A program made the position numbers and the translations under genes. A stretch of 64,000 nt of DNA from Pseudomonadota bacterium (lineage in GTDB: Bacteria; Pseudomonadota; Alphaproteobacteria; UBA828), in NCBI GenBank assembly GCA_027624955.1, contig JAQBTG010000005.1, positions 1-64,000 on the forward strand, written 5' to 3'. The notes beneath the pieces were generated by a model. The model saw only the letters and a program-made list of their open reading frames with translations, ran no database searches and had not been told where the DNA came from. Of the stretch, positions 31,542-37,522 are shown in pieces. Within the stretch, counting starts at the first letter, position 1, and each line of letters begins with the position of its first letter.

Positions 31542-32102
31542 ATGATCGCTTTGAAAGGCATTGCGGGCATCTTCGTAGGCATCGCCATGGCGCTGGTCGC
31601 AGGAAGCAGCTTCGCGGCGGATGCACCGATGCGCGGCGAAGGCATGCAGGCGGGCCTGTCGATCGAATATTTCTACAACGATTTCCGCCATATTGACGAC
31701 GTCATCGAATTTGCCAGATTTAACGAATCGGCGTCAGGCGAACCCCTGCCCAACGTCGATTTTCGCGGTGGTTCGGGCAAACCGGTGCTCAACCAGAAAC
31801 ACAAAAACCTCGTCGCGGCGATGATCACTGGCTATATCAATTTTCCCAGCCCTGGCACGTATCGGTTCAAAATTCGCTCAAACGACGGTGTGCAGCTCAC
31901 CATTGGCGGTATCACGTTGCATGAGGACCCGGAGCCCCATCCAGACCGGACCTCAGATGCCGTGTCGTTTACGGCGCGTGAAGCTGGCTGGGTGCCGATC
32001 GCCATCGTCTATTATGAGCGCAAAGGAAGCTGGGCCATCGAGCTGAGTTGGCAACAGGACGGTGAATTTATCGCCGTACCGGCTTCTCATTTTGCGAATT
32101 GA
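31542..32102 (+). CDS. exported PA14-domain protein
   Basis: This 186-residue protein has a Sec signal peptide (about 1-25, cut near SSFAAD) followed by a single PA14 domain: LSIEYFYNDFRHIDDV, INFPSPGTYRFKIRSNDGVQ, LTIGG and GSWAIELSWQ. PA14 is a beta-barrel that commonly binds carbohydrates and normally accompanies a catalytic domain; here it stands alone, so a binding or adhesion role is likely. It ends 145 bases before the Rieske operon. Confidence 0.85.
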   Translation: MIALKGIAGIFVGIAMALVAGSSFAADAPMRGEGMQAGLSIEYFYNDFRHIDDVIEFARFNESASGEPLPNVDFRGGSGKPVLNQKHKNLVAAMITGYINFPSPGTYRFKIRSNDGVQLTIGGITLHEDPEPHPDRTSDAVSFTAREAGWVPIAIVYYERKGSWAIELSWQQDGEFIAVPASHFAN

Positions 32103-32247: not shown

Positions 32248-32490
32248 ATGGAAACCGCACGTACGCTAATCGATATCGTCGTGATCTGGGGTTGGATCGG
32301 CCTTGGCGTCGCAACCGCGTTTCTCCTGTTCGGCATTGAGCGAATCGACCCGTCGGCAGAGCGGTCATACGCTTTTCGCCCCCTGCTCATTCCCGGGCTT
32401 ATCGTGCTGTGGCCATTGGTTTTGCTGCGCTGGTATTCCCTTGAACGCAGCAAATCCGGAAAGCATAAAGATGCAACGCCGACACCGTAA
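32248..32490 (+). CDS. small membrane protein, first gene of the Rieske operon
   Basis: This 80-residue protein has two hydrophobic segments (about 8-28 and 46-62) separated by GIERIDPSAERSYAFRPLL, and a basic, hydrophilic tail. No family is certain. The next gene starts 20 bases before its stop, so translation is likely coupled. GGGGGATCA precedes the ATG. Confidence 0.72.
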   Translation: METARTLIDIVVIWGWIGLGVATAFLLFGIERIDPSAERSYAFRPLLIPGLIVLWPLVLLRWYSLERSKSGKHKDATPTP

Positions 32491-32629
32491 TGCGCACGCC
32501 CGCATGTGGGTGATTCTTGCCCTGGCGTTGCCGGCTATCCTGATCGCGGCGTTTGCGATCCGCCAGGTCGGACCCACTGAACAAGCGGCGGTGAAGATCG
32601 AACCGATGGCCGAGGCGAGTGAAAAATGA
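32471..32629 (+). CDS. single-helix small membrane protein (52 residues)
   Basis: An ATG at 32471 opens a frame with a basic start (MQRRHRNAHAR), one membrane helix (about 12-31, MWVILALALPAILIAAFAI) and a short acidic tail. Its stop overlaps the start of the Rieske fusion gene (ATGA), and it overlaps the preceding gene by 20 bases. This tight packing is the main support. Function is unknown. Confidence 0.6.
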   Translation: MQRRHRNAHARMWVILALALPAILIAAFAIRQVGPTEQAAVKIEPMAEASEK

Positions 32630-33681
32630 GCGTGCGCTATCACCCTGTCGGCTGGAACCGAAACAAGATAATTTACGATCTTGTTCTGCTCTGCGCCGTT
32701 GCCGGATACATCCTGCTTTTTCTGAAAATCGCGCCGTCTTTTCAGGATGTGACCCGGCCGTTTAGCGGCGCCATCCTTCGCGGCCAAGCGTTCGGCACCT
32801 GCACCTTCCTCTTGTTGACGATCATTCTATGCATCGGCCCGCTGGCGCGGCTCGATCCGCGCTTTTTGCCGCTGCTGTATAATCGCCGCCATTTCGGCGT
32901 CTTGACCTGCGCTTTGGCGTTTACCCATGCCAGCCACATGGTGAGCATTTATTTTTCGTTCAGCCCGCTCAACAAATATGCCGCGGTGCTGGCGAGTAAT
33001 ACGAGCTACGGCCAGATCCTCGGTTTCCCGTTCGAAAGTTTTGGCATTTTCGCATTGTTTGTCCTGCTCGTCATGGCAGTGACGAGCCACGATTTTTGGC
33101 TCAGTTTTCTCACGCCGCCGATGTGGAAGGCGATCCACATGTCGGTCTATCTCGCCTATGTGGCAGTGGTTCTGCATGTTGCGCTCGGCTACCTCCAATC
33201 TGCGCAAAATCCGCTCTTCGCGGTCATCGTCGCAATTGGCGCGGTCAGCGTCGCCGCACTTCACTTTGTCGCAGGCCGTATCGAGAGATCAAAAGATCAA
33301 GATTATCCCGAGCCTGCCGAGGAGGCGCCTTGGATCGTGGTCGGCCGGGCGGAAAGCATTCCCGAAGACCGGGCAATCATTGTTGCCGTCGAAGGTGGCG
33401 AGCGGGTTGCCATATTTCGTTATGACGGCAAGCTTTCGGCGGTGGCGAATGTTTGCGCCCACCAGAACGGGCCGCTTGGTGAAGGGCGCATTCTCTTTGG
33501 CTGCATTACCTGCCCCTGGCACGGGTTTCAGTACCGCCCCGAAGACGGTTGTGCGCCGCCGCCCTTCACCGAAAAAATTGCCACCTACCAGCTAAAACTC
33601 GTAGGCGATCAAATCCTGCTCGACCCGAGGCCCAATGCGCCGGGCACGCCCGTCGAGCCGCTGCAATACGCGAAGGCTTAA
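32626..33681 (+). CDS. ferric-reductase-like membrane domain fused to a Rieske [2Fe-2S] domain
   Basis: The 351-residue protein has about six membrane helices (20-215) with paired histidines His101/His104 and His171/His184, placed to bind haem as in ferric-reductase-like (FRD) domains. Residues about 235-335 form a Rieske domain with Cys277-Ala-His279 and Cys296-Pro-Trp-His299 as cluster ligands. It therefore looks like a membrane electron-transfer protein linking haem b and a 2Fe-2S cluster. No flavin/NAD domain is present, so the electron donor is unknown. Confidence 0.85.
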   Translation: MSVRYHPVGWNRNKIIYDLVLLCAVAGYILLFLKIAPSFQDVTRPFSGAILRGQAFGTCTFLLLTIILCIGPLARLDPRFLPLLYNRRHFGVLTCALAFTHASHMVSIYFSFSPLNKYAAVLASNTSYGQILGFPFESFGIFALFVLLVMAVTSHDFWLSFLTPPMWKAIHMSVYLAYVAVVLHVALGYLQSAQNPLFAVIVAIGAVSVAALHFVAGRIERSKDQDYPEPAEEAPWIVVGRAESIPEDRAIIVAVEGGERVAIFRYDGKLSAVANVCAHQNGPLGEGRILFGCITCPWHGFQYRPEDGCAPPPFTEKIATYQLKLVGDQILLDPRPNAPGTPVEPLQYAKA

Positions 33682-33683
33682 AC

Positions 33684-34460
33684 ATGGCGAAACGCGAATC
33701 CGTATTTTTTGTCGGCTGGCTCAATTCGATCCCGCGGCCGCTCGCGCTATTTCTTCTGTGCATCGCATTTCTTGCCATCGGCGGTTTGAGCGGTATAGGT
33801 TTTAGCTTAGGCAGCAGCGTCAACGATCCTGGTGATGGAAACTTCGCCTGGAAAGACGGATACCAAAAGGCGAGCGGTATTTTGGTCGCCAAGCCCTACC
33901 CGATTCTTCGCCTTCGGCCTGACGATATGAACCCGAAGGCGCGCACCGTCATGCTGACCGTACCCGGCAAGCGCGGCATCGAGGGCAAATATGCCAAACT
34001 CTTGGGCAAGCCTGTCGATGCCGGCGGGTTCTGGTTCAAACGTGGATCGATCGACATGCTCCAGATACAGGGCAAGATAGCCCTCAAAGCGCCTGTGCAG
34101 GAGGAAGGCAAAGAGATTATCGCATTTGTGCCGGCGCCGCCGGTGTCGCTTGGCCGCTGGCGGCTGGTCGGAGAAATTTGCGACGGCAAGTGCTATACGG
34201 GCGCCATGTCGCCCGGCGATGGGCTGGCCCACAAAGCATGCGCCAATCTTTGCATTACGTCCGGTGCGCCGCCGGTATTCGTGAGCACCGGTTCGGTCGA
34301 GGGGACAGAATTTTTTCTCATGGCCGATCCGGACGGCGGACCGCTGCCCGATCGTTTTCGTGATCTGACCGCCGTGCTGGTGGAACTCGAAGGCGAGGTG
34401 GAACGCTTGGACGATCTCCTTATTTTCAAAGTCGACCTAGCGCAAGCGAAGGTGTTTTGA
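33684..34460 (+). CDS. membrane-anchored protein with a conserved-looking Cys/His motif
   Basis: The 258-residue protein has one N-terminal membrane anchor (about 18-42) and a large soluble domain predicted outside. A striking segment carries Cys166, Cys170, His183, Cys186 and Cys190 (GEICDGKCYTGAM, then HKACANLCI), which looks like a metal or cofactor site or disulfides. Its gene starts 2 bases after the Rieske fusion. I recall similar motifs beside Rieske genes elsewhere but cannot name a family. A partner role in the same redox complex is inference. Confidence 0.75.
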   Translation: MAKRESVFFVGWLNSIPRPLALFLLCIAFLAIGGLSGIGFSLGSSVNDPGDGNFAWKDGYQKASGILVAKPYPILRLRPDDMNPKARTVMLTVPGKRGIEGKYAKLLGKPVDAGGFWFKRGSIDMLQIQGKIALKAPVQEEGKEIIAFVPAPPVSLGRWRLVGEICDGKCYTGAMSPGDGLAHKACANLCITSGAPPVFVSTGSVEGTEFFLMADPDGGPLPDRFRDLTAVLVELEGEVERLDDLLIFKVDLAQAKVF

Positions 34461-34462
34461 CG

Positions 34463-34705
34463 ATGCCGCGCATCGCCTGGATGGCGCTTGGCATCGTCGC
34501 GACAGCAGCGTTTGGCTATGCTTCCTATTGGGTGTGGTTGGAGGTGCAAGTACAGATTCGCGGCACGTTCATCTCCAGCTTCGGAATTTTTGCCGCCGTC
34601 ATCGCGGCATTTATATTCCTGAGTCTCATTCAGTTTGCCATCGATTTTGCCGGTCGTATCGCCACCCGGCTGGGCAAATCGCCGCCAGAAAATTCGCCGA
34701 ACTGA
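34463..34705 (+). CDS. small two-helix membrane protein, last gene of the Rieske operon
   Basis: This 80-residue protein has two membrane segments (about 5-25 and 40-62) and a basic tail. The ATG at 34463 lies 2 bases after the previous stop; a TTG at 34457 overlapping that stop is an alternative. Only one base separates its stop from the convergent SDR gene. Confidence 0.72.
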   Translation: MPRIAWMALGIVATAAFGYASYWVWLEVQVQIRGTFISSFGIFAAVIAAFIFLSLIQFAIDFAGRIATRLGKSPPENSPN

Positions 34706-35410
34706 TTATCCGCCGTTGCCATAGACGGTGAGAAGAGCGCCACGCGTTACGTTGTTTTCAGGTGATGCCAGAAACGCAATGGCGTTGGCGATATCCGCGA
34801 CCTTCGGCCAACTCGCATGATCGGCATCTGGCATCGCTTCACGGTTGACCCGGGTGTCCATGATCGATGGCACCACGCCATTGACCCAAATATTCTCAGC
34901 CGCCAGTTCTTCGGCTAAGCTTTCAGTCAGCACCGCAACTGCGGCCTTGCTCGCAGCGTACGCAATCATGCCGGCGCCGGATCGTGGCTCCAAGGCCGGG
35001 CGGGCAAGCACGTTGACGATGCGTCCGCCCACCGGGCCGTCCGGGGCAACGCTTCTGGCGCGTATCTTTGCCGCCGCTTCCCGGCAACATAGAAAGCAGG
35101 TCACGGCATTCATGTTGATCTGTTCCAGGAAGTCGCTCTTGGAGGTCTCGCTGAACGGCGCCATGGCAAATCCGCCGGCGGTATGGATGGAAGCGAAAAT
35201 ATCGGGCAGGCTGGCGTAGAACGCTTGCACACTATCTTCGTCGGTCAGATCTATGCCGCCATGAAATTCCACGCGGGGGTTGTCGCTTTCTCGATCACTT
35301 CGGCTCGGTATATGGCAGACCGCCCCGGCCTCCGTTAATTGTCCAACTACCGCGGAGCCAAGCGCGCCGGCACCTCCCGTGACGACGACGTGCAACCCAT
35401 CAAAATTCAT
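34706..35410 (-). CDS. short-chain dehydrogenase/reductase (SDR)
   Basis: The 234-residue Rossmann protein has the cofactor motif TGGAGALGS (11-19) and the active-site Tyr151/Lys155 in YAASK. The usual catalytic Ser about 13 residues before the Tyr is not apparent (the strand reads IVNVLARPALEPRSG), so activity may be altered. It sits upstream of the fused-permease ABC genes but reads toward the Rieske operon. Substrate unknown. Confidence 0.9.
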   Translation of the reverse strand: MNFDGLHVVVTGGAGALGSAVVGQLTEAGAVCHIPSRSDRESDNPRVEFHGGIDLTDEDSVQAFYASLPDIFASIHTAGGFAMAPFSETSKSDFLEQINMNAVTCFLCCREAAAKIRARSVAPDGPVGGRIVNVLARPALEPRSGAGMIAYAASKAAVAVLTESLAEELAAENIWVNGVVPSIMDTRVNREAMPDADHASWPKVADIANAIAFLASPENNVTRGALLTVYGNGG

Positions 35411-35443: not shown

Positions 35444-37522
35444 TTAGTGTGCGCGCTCGCGGAGCGTCAACACCGCGCCCAGCACCACGATACCGAACAC
35501 GATATCGCGCCACGCAATCGGTATATTAGTGCCGGTGACCAGCGTGGCCACTGCCGTCAGCAGCAAGGCGCCGCCCAGAATACCGACATAGTGCCCGCGG
35601 CCGCCGGTTGCCAAGGTGCCGCCGACAAGAACGACGGCGATCGAAGGAAGCAGGAACGGCAGGCCCATATTGAGAAACGAGACGGTGCTGAACCCGGTCA
35701 TCATCACGCCGGCCAGAGCTGAGCAAAAGCCGCTCAGGGCGTAGACGCCGATGGTCGTGCGGTCGACGCGCACGCCCGAAAGCAGGGAGACGCGCGAGGA
35801 ATTGCCAAGGGCGAAGATACGCCGCCCGAAGGTGGTTCGGTGTATGACGATAATGGAAATCGCGACAAACACAATCAGCAGCCAAACCGACGGCGCGAAC
35901 CCGAGAAACCGACCGGTGAACAGCCAGACCAGAACTGGTGGCGAGCGACCGGTGGGAATGCCCCCGGTGTAGAGCAGCCCAAGGCCCTGCATGACGCCGT
36001 TGGTTGCCAGGGTGACGACGATCGCCGGCATACCGAAAAGCACGATGCCGAGCCCGTTCACGATGCCTATTCCGATGCCGACGGCGAGCACAACCGGGAT
36101 GGCCCAATAGGCCGGCCCGTCCATGCCGTTTGACAATGCCGCCAGCATGACTCCAGTAAAAGCCATGGTGTGCGGTACTGAAAGATCGAGCCCGCCCGTC
36201 ATCACCACCGCACCCTGTCCCAGCCCAAGCACGGCGAAGAATAAAGCTAGCGTAAACAGTGAATTGAAATAATGCGTGCTCCAGGCCGAGCCGCCGATCA
36301 AAACGAGCACCAGCACGTAAGCGACCAAAAGAAGCACCCAGGCCGGGATAATCAGACGCAAGGTCTCCCAGTTTTTTACGCGCCATTGACGGAGCGTCGA
36401 ACCGGTCAGCTCGTCGCTCACGCGCGGTTTCCAGGTCGTTCGCAATTTGCCTCGCTGGGCTTCGGGGCGATCGAGAAATTGCGGCAATGTGCGATTACTG
36501 AGACCGGTGATGTTGAGCTTGAGAATTTGCCAATGCCCGGAGAGCGGTGAATCCTTGCCCAGGGTCGCCCCGGCCACTGCCAGTAGCAAAATAATACCCT
36601 CTACGATTGGCGTGAAATGCGAAGAAATGTTCAGCACCAACATCACGTTGGAGATCAGCATCAGGGTCAGCGCAGCGAACACCGTGCCGACACAGCCGCC
36701 TTGCCCGCCGCCGATGCGGGTGCCGCCGAGGATGGTCGCGGAGAAGATCAGCAACAACAGGCCGCTGCCGACCAGCGGGTCGCCGGACAAGGTTTGTGCA
36801 CTCAGGAACACGCCGCCGGCGCCATAAAACCCACCGGCCAAAACATAGCCGAAAAATTTTGTCCGGGTGACGGAGATGCCGTTTGAGAATGCGGCATCCT
36901 CGTTGCTGCCGACAGCGTAGAGCGCAGTGCCGAATCGCGATCGCTTGATCAGCGCCCAGACGAGCAGCGCAATAAGGAGGACCACGAGTGACGCCGGAAT
37001 GACTTCGTAAATTAGGTCTCCCGTCAGCATCTGAGTGATGCCGTAGGGGACCATGCCGCCGGGATCAGGCATGATCAGCAGGTTAAGGCCGAGGATGATG
37101 AACATCGTGGCCAGGGTCACCACCACCGGCTGGAGACGCATGAAAGCGATGAAGAAGCCATTGAAGGCGCCGACCGCAGCGCCCATGCCGAGGCCCGCCA
37201 CGCACATCAGGATTTGGCTGTGCGCCGTATCGCGGGTGTAGAGCGCGATCATGACATTCACCAGTGCCATGGTCGCACCGCATGACAAATCAAAGCCGCG
37301 AATGAGGAAGACAATGGTCTGTCCCATGGCCGCGAGCGCGAGCGGCCCTGCATTGGCAAACAGGAAGCTGATTTCGAAATAGCTGACCGGGCCCGGCGAG
37401 ATGAAGTCGAGATAAACAAAAATAGCGATAAAGGCGCCGACGGCGACGAACAAGCGCTGCTGGCGCGCCAGGCCGCGGCGCCAAGTTAGCGGCACGGAGG
37501 AGAGGATAGAGGTGCTGCTCAC
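35444..37522 (-). CDS. fused double ABC-importer permease (RbsC-like, two domains in one chain)
   Basis: The 692-residue protein holds two complete RbsC/XylH-type permease domains, about 20-330 and 390-690, joined by a linker of about 60 mostly hydrophilic residues. Each half has the family's GG(F/L)DLS motif (RGFDLSCGATMALVN; TGGLDLSVPHTMAF) and a late NGxxVxxT-like segment. Normally two separate subunits dimerise. The start is GTG at 37522, overlapping the ATPase stop. The likely cargo is a sugar or related polyol. Confidence 0.9.
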   Translation of the reverse strand: MSSTSILSSVPLTWRRGLARQQRLFVAVGAFIAIFVYLDFISPGPVSYFEISFLFANAGPLALAAMGQTIVFLIRGFDLSCGATMALVNVMIALYTRDTAHSQILMCVAGLGMGAAVGAFNGFFIAFMRLQPVVVTLATMFIILGLNLLIMPDPGGMVPYGITQMLTGDLIYEVIPASLVVLLIALLVWALIKRSRFGTALYAVGSNEDAAFSNGISVTRTKFFGYVLAGGFYGAGGVFLSAQTLSGDPLVGSGLLLLIFSATILGGTRIGGGQGGCVGTVFAALTLMLISNVMLVLNISSHFTPIVEGIILLLAVAGATLGKDSPLSGHWQILKLNITGLSNRTLPQFLDRPEAQRGKLRTTWKPRVSDELTGSTLRQWRVKNWETLRLIIPAWVLLLVAYVLVLVLIGGSAWSTHYFNSLFTLALFFAVLGLGQGAVVMTGGLDLSVPHTMAFTGVMLAALSNGMDGPAYWAIPVVLAVGIGIGIVNGLGIVLFGMPAIVVTLATNGVMQGLGLLYTGGIPTGRSPPVLVWLFTGRFLGFAPSVWLLIVFVAISIIVIHRTTFGRRIFALGNSSRVSLLSGVRVDRTTIGVYALSGFCSALAGVMMTGFSTVSFLNMGLPFLLPSIAVVLVGGTLATGGRGHYVGILGGALLLTAVATLVTGTNIPIAWRDIVFGIVVLGAVLTLRERAH

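What the first reader, a model, noticed from the sequence alone, without database searches (positions are those of the whole stretch)
32248..34705. Five-gene membrane redox operon around an FRD-Rieske fusion
Five genes with overlaps or 2-base gaps encode three small membrane proteins, one haem/Rieske membrane protein, and one anchored protein with a Cys-x3-Cys...His-x2-Cys-x3-Cys motif. There is no NAD(P)H or flavin domain and no recognised terminal enzyme, so donor and acceptor are unknown. The compact layout suggests one complex, a good candidate for an undescribed electron-transfer system. The ligand residues are seen; the complex is inferred.
Basis: partly seen in the sequence, partly recalled or inferred. 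Interest (0 to 1): 0.68.

Follow-up and report, generated by a model that had tools for sequence, protein, structure and literature searches.

The report
Rieske-haem transmembrane electron conduit operon
A five-gene bacterial operon, conserved across many Alphaproteobacteria, most likely builds a membrane wire that moves electrons between cytoplasmic enzymes carrying matching iron-sulphur "plugs" and an undescribed metal-binding protein outside the membrane; the parts are real and conserved, but the chemistry it serves is still unknown.

Summary
The five genes are real, in the stated order, and conserved. The haem/Rieske gene (C) and the Cys/His gene (D) are adjacent on one strand in all 94 loci examined. 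In an even sample of 289 Alphaproteobacteria, 14 of 15 genomes with C have D and none has D alone. C is a YedZ/STEAP-type haem core with a ferredoxin-type Rieske domain, predicted cytoplasmic. D has one anchor helix and two OB-like barrels; Cys170, His183, Cys186 and Cys190 never vary in 81 homologues, but Cys166 does. No solved structure matches D.

Relatives point to one. About 40% of the (similarity-selected) homologous loci carry a Rieske-tagged FMN/glutamate-synthase-like protein, about a third a Rieske-tagged thiamine-diphosphate enzyme, and one genome a Rieske-FMN-reductase. Glutamate-synthase homologues tagged with CDGSH instead of Rieske do not co-occur with C (0/10 versus 15/20). I infer a cytoplasm-to-periplasm conduit fed by Rieske-to-Rieske transfer.

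The window's genome lacks the two common partners; only a convergent short-chain dehydrogenase adjoins. Its donor, the direction of flow, D's cofactor and the acceptor remain unproved. Verdict: real, undescribed variant of FRD electron transfer.

The parts
32248..32490 (+). Gene A: 80-aa membrane protein (about two TM segments)
   Evidence: hydropathy; A-position homologues upstream of C in 93 of 94 loci; no Pfam/NCBIfam match
32471..32629 (+). Gene B: 52-aa single-TM protein (start ATG 32471 or 32504)
   Evidence: a small TM ORF at this position in 91 of 94 loci
32626..33681 (+). Gene C: FRD-Rieske fusion, 351 aa
   Evidence: Pfam PF01794 and PF00355; AF2 mean pLDDT 86; Foldseek to STEAP1/STEAP4 and to dioxygenase Rieske ferredoxins
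32659..33300 (+). C residues 12-225: six-helix haem core; R87, H101, H171, H184 in YedZ/STEAP spacing
   Evidence: helices; R87, H101, H171 and H184 identical in 91 of 91 homologues; pattern from PMC3591440
33331..33588 (+). C residues 236-321: Rieske [2Fe-2S] domain, ligands C277, H279, C296, H299
   Evidence: (91 of 91); predicted cytoplasmic by the positive-inside rule
33684..34460 (+). Gene D: anchored double-OB protein, 258 aa
   Evidence: AF2 mean pLDDT 91, pTM 0.84; no PDB match with E <= 0.1; in 14 of 15 C-bearing genomes of a 289-genome sample
34191..34253 (+). D residues 170-190: invariant Cys3His site (C170, H183, C186, C190) on two short helices of the second OB domain
   Evidence: 81 of 81 homologues; helices 168-171 and 180-192
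34457..34705 (+). Gene E: 82-aa membrane protein (TTG start, alternative ATG 34463)
   Evidence: a small TM ORF at this position in 81 of 94 loci
34706..35410 (-). Convergent short-chain dehydrogenase gene; possible but unproved local partner
   Evidence: Pfam adh_short E 2.2e-25; SDRs also next to the operon in about 10 other loci and in Rhizobium plasmids, but orthology is weak

Best explanation
A-E encode one membrane electron-transfer module. C is the conduit: a six-helix b-haem core of the YedZ(MsrQ)/STEAP branch of the ferric-reductase-domain superfamily with a C-terminal ferredoxin-type Rieske [2Fe-2S] domain on the cytoplasmic face. D is the outer partner: an N-terminal anchor and two OB-like periplasmic domains, the second holding a Cys3His cofactor or metal site. 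A, B and E are small structural subunits. Electrons most likely enter from cytoplasmic enzymes that carry their own Rieske domain (FMN/glutamate-synthase-like, TPP/pyruvate-oxidase-like, or FMN-reductase), pass Rieske to Rieske to C, cross by the haem, and reach D and then a periplasmic or quinone acceptor. SHOWN: gene order, conservation, co-occurrence, domain content, invariant ligands. INFERRED: topology, haem and cluster occupancy, C-D contact, direction, acceptor. In the window's own genome neither common Rieske enzyme was found, so its donor is unidentified; the adjacent SDR or a separate ferredoxin are candidates.
For: C-D adjacent in 94 of 94 loci, mostly with overlapping stop/start codons; C and D co-occur in 14 of 15 vs 0 of 274 genomes, Fisher p 6e-23, and sit in the same 5 plasmids of 72,556. 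C: Pfam FRD and Rieske, MsrQ-like segment, STEAP fold, R87/H101/H171/H184 invariant. Topology N-in/C-in from charges (loop 2-3 mean 3.5 K+R). D: AF2 pLDDT 91, invariant C170/H183/C186/C190 in 81 of 81. Partners: Rieske-FMN-GltS near 40 of 94 loci, Rieske-TPP near 31 of 94, Rieske-FMN_red beside C in G216. Genome-wide link: Rieske-GltS with C in 6 of 7 genomes (p 4e-8) and, in one family, 10 of 14 (p 3e-9), including unlinked copies. CDGSH-tagged GltS homologues: C in 0 of 10 vs 15 of 20 for Rieske-tagged (p 2e-4).
Against: Neither Rieske-GltS nor Rieske-TPP was found in the window's genome, 9 of 15 C-bearing genomes in the even sample lack both, and 6 of 12 Rieske-TPP genomes lack C, so these partners are neither necessary nor universal. 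Four of 14 Rieske-GltS genomes in the family sample lack C. Genomes are related, so the p-values overstate independence. No complex, cofactor or activity was measured; the C-D interface was not modelled.
Confidence: 0.6

Rival explanations
1. Flow is reversed: the haem core takes electrons from the quinol pool and C's cytoplasmic Rieske domain delivers them to Rieske-tagged enzymes for reductive chemistry (for example a ferredoxin-GltS-like amination), with D as a regulatory or assembly subunit.
For: Ferredoxin-dependent glutamate synthases use reduced Fe-S donors (general knowledge); the same co-occurrence data fit either direction.
Against: The TPP partner resembles pyruvate oxidases/dehydrogenases, which usually release electrons; D, with an invariant Cys3His site, is nearly obligate (14 of 15).
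Confidence: 0.2
2. A plain transmembrane ferric or cupric reductase (STEAP/FRE-like): D binds and presents metal at the periplasmic face and the Rieske domain accepts electrons from any cytoplasmic ferredoxin reductase.
For: STEAP fold match; known STEAP metalloreductase activity (PMC3591440); Cys/His-rich D; no dedicated enzyme found in this window's genome.
Against: No iron or copper uptake genes recur around 94 loci (a CopD-family gene lies beside one Rhizobium copy); does not explain the Rieske-versus-CDGSH tag correlation.
Confidence: 0.12
3. An MsrPQ-like repair system in which C feeds an unidentified periplasmic enzyme through D.
For: MsrQ-like spacing of R87/H101/H171/H184 and a weak MsrQ model hit.
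Against: No molybdoenzyme or other periplasmic reductase recurs in the neighbourhoods.
Confidence: 0.05
4. In this window the operon is a relic that has lost its partner enzyme and has no present function.
For: Its nearest relatives (75% and 73% identity) carry Rieske-GltS downstream of E, the window's genome does not.
Against: All five frames are intact with every ligand residue retained; other partner-free genomes keep intact copies too.
Confidence: 0.05

Closest known systems
MsrQ (YedZ) of the MsrPQ methionine-sulphoxide reductase system
   Same: Six-helix FRD haem core, first canonical His replaced by Arg, three conserved His with the same spacing
   Different: C has a Rieske domain, an obligate D partner and A/B/E subunits; no molybdoenzyme MsrP
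STEAP1-4 metalloreductases
   Same: Foldseek match of the TM core (E about 3e-4); Arg/His pattern; transmembrane electron transfer
   Different: Rieske domain instead of the NADPH/FAD module of STEAP2-4; bacterial multi-gene operon
NOX/FRE enzymes
   Same: FRD superfamily transmembrane electron transfer from cytoplasm outward
   Different: No FAD/NADPH dehydrogenase domain; only three of four canonical His positions kept
FRD-Rieske domain architecture listed by Zhang et al. 2013 (PMC3591440)
   Same: Bacterial FRD proteins with a Rieske domain were catalogued as an architecture (model M4)
   Different: In the passages read, no operon, partner protein D or Rieske-tagged enzymes are described; that model also lists an FMN domain
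Type 5 CDGSH proteins (CDGSH-glutamate-synthase FMN fusions, PMC3174974)
   Same: About 65% identical GltS-FMN part with an N-terminal [2Fe-2S] module (compared with the Rieske-GltS partner, not with the window's operon)
   Different: Two CDGSH motifs instead of a Rieske domain; not co-occurring with C (0 of 10)
DUF5818 (PF19135)
   Same: Weak match of 4 of 81 D homologues (best E 0.0034)
   Different: Below acceptance; function unknown; D has an anchor and an additional OB-like domain

Membership tests
FRD superfamily, YedZ/STEAP branch | PF01794 six-helix core | tested here: met
   Pfam E 3.5e-11; six helices; STEAP match
FRD superfamily, YedZ/STEAP branch | First canonical His replaced by Arg; His equivalent to NOX2 115, 209, 222 kept | tested here: met
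   R87-14-H101 and H171-13-H184 spacing, 91 of 91 (pattern); residue equivalence is by spacing, not structural superposition
MsrPQ system | Adjacent periplasmic molybdoenzyme MsrP | tested here: not met
   No such gene in the window operon nor recurrent near 94 loci
NOX/FRE | FAD- and NADPH-binding dehydrogenase domain on the FRD protein | tested here: not met
   none on C or any operon protein
NOX/FRE | Four haem-binding His | tested here: not met
   R87 at the first position by spacing; H89 is an extra invariant His at a different spacing
Cytochrome bc1/b6f | Cytochrome b subunit plus p-side anchored Rieske protein | tested here: not met
   No cytochrome b Pfam match; Rieske domain is C-terminal and predicted n-side
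Rieske [2Fe-2S] ferredoxins (dioxygenase type) | CxH...CxxH ligands and fold | tested here: met
   C277, H279, C296, H299 in 91 of 91; Foldseek E down to 5.5e-7
3Cys:1His [2Fe-2S] (mitoNEET-like) or other metal site in D | Bound cluster or metal | not testable with these tools
   Only the invariant C170/H183/C186/C190 residues are shown; no CDGSH match
DUF5818 | Pfam gathering score | tested here: not met
   4 of 81 members weak, best E 0.0034; window D none
OB-fold proteins | OB-type beta barrels in D | tested here: inconclusive
   Strand order and top Foldseek hits (SSB, RPA, YgiW) suggest OB, but E > 0.1

The most novel reading that the evidence does not exclude
A modular 'Rieske bus': one membrane conduit (ABCDE) serves different cytoplasmic oxidoreductases, each recruited by acquiring a Rieske domain as an interchangeable electron-transfer plug, and exports their electrons through a new OB-fold Cys3His protein.
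Probability: 0.35. Interest if true: 0.82.

Novelty: new variant of a known kind. Interest (0 to 1): 0.7.

Why it matters
It would be a transmembrane electron route with its own coupling rule: enzymes join by carrying a Rieske domain. It links three Rieske-fused protein types (FMN/glutamate-synthase-like, TPP, membrane haem) in one cluster, gives a testable role to a conserved protein with no Pfam match (D) and to the Rieske-GltS and Rieske-TPP families, and is widespread in marine roseobacters and rhizobia. I found no paper describing it in the open-access library searched.

Tried and rejected
Pfam/NCBIfam for A, B, D, E: nothing accepted. PDB sequence search with the D profile: only chance hits. 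Folding a natural C-D single ORF (L095) to see an interface: abandoned because the mixed alignment misplaced D rows onto C, coordinates are not returned, and the fusion may be a frameshift in a low-coverage MAG. PA14 protein 31542-32102 as a sixth gene: rejected, only weak fragment hits in one of 13 homologous loci, far from the operon. GltS-like genes on C31 and C36 of the own genome as the missing partner: rejected, no Rieske domain and a gene context resembling N-methylglutamate synthase. SDR as orthologous partner: left open, only the fourth-best match in its genome among 48 SDR hits. Malic enzyme, antiporter, ABC transporters as core parts: not universal. No Rfam RNA and no convincing promoter near the operon. 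Literature searches for Rieske with GltS, TPP or this FRD system found nothing relevant.

Full report
WHAT IS THERE. C has accepted Pfam matches to Ferric_reduct and Rieske; A, B, D and E have none. Upstream lie a PA14-domain gene (31542-32102) and an X-Pro peptidase-like gene; downstream an SDR gene converges on E with no spacer.

CONSERVATION. Thirteen diverse alphaproteobacterial genomes with D all have A-C-D in order. A profile search with C found more than 590 candidate stretches, of which the best 80 were kept. In all 94 loci examined, D follows C on the same strand; in most the reading frames overlap by 1-4 nt. A was recovered upstream in 93; small TM ORFs at the B and E positions were found in 91 and 81. 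At least two contigs (L024/L060, L028/L089) were reached twice, so distinct loci are about 92. In an even sample of 289 Alphaproteobacteria C occurs in 15 genomes and D in 14 of the same 15; two further weak D hits (E 9e-6 and 6e-4) were not counted. In 72,556 plasmids C and D occur in the same five Rhizobium records and nowhere else. In a 249-genome sample of the phylum all six hits were in the same class.

PROTEIN C. AlphaFold gives six helices and a beta domain (mean pLDDT 86). The TM part matches STEAP1/STEAP4, the beta domain matches dioxygenase Rieske ferredoxins. R87, H101, H171, H184 and all four Rieske ligands are identical in 91 of 91 homologues. The spacing R-14-H and H-13-H is that of YedZ/STEAP, where the first canonical His is Arg (PMC3591440). 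Charges put the N-terminus and the Rieske domain inside: mean K+R is 3.5 in loop 2-3 and 2.9 after TM6, and 1.0 or less in the other loops. This is inference.

PROTEIN D. AlphaFold is confident (mean pLDDT 91, pTM 0.84): one helix 18-44, then two beta barrels of OB-like order (61-128, 154-250). No solved structure matches significantly; the top hits are OB folds. C170 lies on a short helix and H183, C186, C190 on helix 180-192; all four are invariant in 81 homologues, while C166 is not. A Cys3His metal or [2Fe-2S] site is likely, but the cofactor is not shown. A few members weakly resemble DUF5818.

PARTNERS SEEN IN RELATIVES. Forty of 94 loci carry a ~537-aa protein with an N-terminal Rieske domain and a glutamate-synthase FMN domain, with conserved Rieske ligands and the C-x5-C-x4-C pattern expected for a [3Fe-4S] cluster. 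Thirty-one carry a ~660-aa Rieske plus TPP enzyme closest to pyruvate oxidases. Seventeen carry a Na+(K+)/H+ antiporter. G216 has A and C followed by a Rieske-FMN_red fusion and no D. These locus counts come from the loci most similar to C, so they are biased; the even samples are the fair test. There, Rieske-GltS occurs in 7 of 289 genomes, 6 of them with C (p 4e-8); Rieske-TPP in 12, 6 with C (p 5e-6). In a 130-genome family sample Rieske-GltS and C each occur in 14 genomes, 10 shared (p 3e-9). Copies far from C or on other contigs contribute, and 9 of 38 genomes without an adjacent copy have one elsewhere, so the link is not only physical. Genomes are related, so p-values are indicative only.

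A NATURAL CONTROL. GltS homologues about 65% identical but lacking the Rieske domain carry two CDGSH motifs instead, the known type 5 CDGSH architecture (PMC3174974). C is present in 0 of 10 genomes with only this form and in 15 of 20 with the Rieske form (p 2e-4). The Rieske tag, not the enzyme, tracks the membrane module. This is the main support for Rieske-to-Rieske transfer.

THE WINDOW'S OWN COPY. Its closest relatives, L035 and L036 (75% and 73% identity in C), have Rieske-GltS downstream of E. The window's genome has neither Rieske-GltS nor Rieske-TPP; its two other GltS-like genes sit in clusters resembling N-methylglutamate synthase. An SDR lies next to the operon in about ten other loci and in Rhizobium plasmids, never together with Rieske-GltS at the same locus (chance of no overlap about 0.001, ignoring kinship), but SDRs are numerous and orthology is weak. 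The partner labels changed several times on the tree of C, which fits a reusable module.

MECHANISM. Best reading: cytoplasmic Rieske enzymes hand electrons to C's Rieske domain, they cross by the haem, reach D, and leave to a periplasmic or quinone acceptor. Reverse flow and a plain metalloreductase are the main rivals. Direction, acceptor, stoichiometry and cofactor of D are unknown.

NOVELTY. The FRD-Rieske architecture was listed in 2013. I found no description of D, of the operon, or of the Rieske-tagged enzyme set in the open-access library searched; subscription papers were not searchable.

Noticed in passing
L095:4834-6669: C and D form one 612-aa reading frame joined in the predicted cytoplasm; natural fusion or frameshift in a low-coverage MAG.
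   Followed up: partly
L132:4205-6385 (G216): A and C followed by a Rieske plus FMN-reductase fusion in place of D, the only D-less C genome in the 289-genome sample.
   Followed up: partly
L133-L142 versus L143-L149: Homologous GltS-FMN proteins carry either two CDGSH motifs or one Rieske domain at the N-terminus: an apparent swap of [2Fe-2S] modules.
   Followed up: yes
L145:2718-3560 and L148:5047-5895: A DUF5996-like gene of about 280 aa recurs next to Rieske-GltS.
   Followed up: no
L121, L122, L123 (Rhizobium plasmids): SDR-A-B-C-D-E with a divergent TPR / membrane protein / TPP enzyme / OpgC / CoA-transferase block, unlike the roseobacter layout.
   Followed up: partly
window 35444-37522 (-): Two BPD_transp_2 permease domains fused in one 692-aa ABC transporter permease.
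   Followed up: partly
G000 contigs C31 and C36 (L129, L130): Two clusters with a stand-alone GltS-FMN gene and amidotransferase-like neighbours, resembling N-methylglutamate synthase, suggesting methylamine metabolism.
   Followed up: partly
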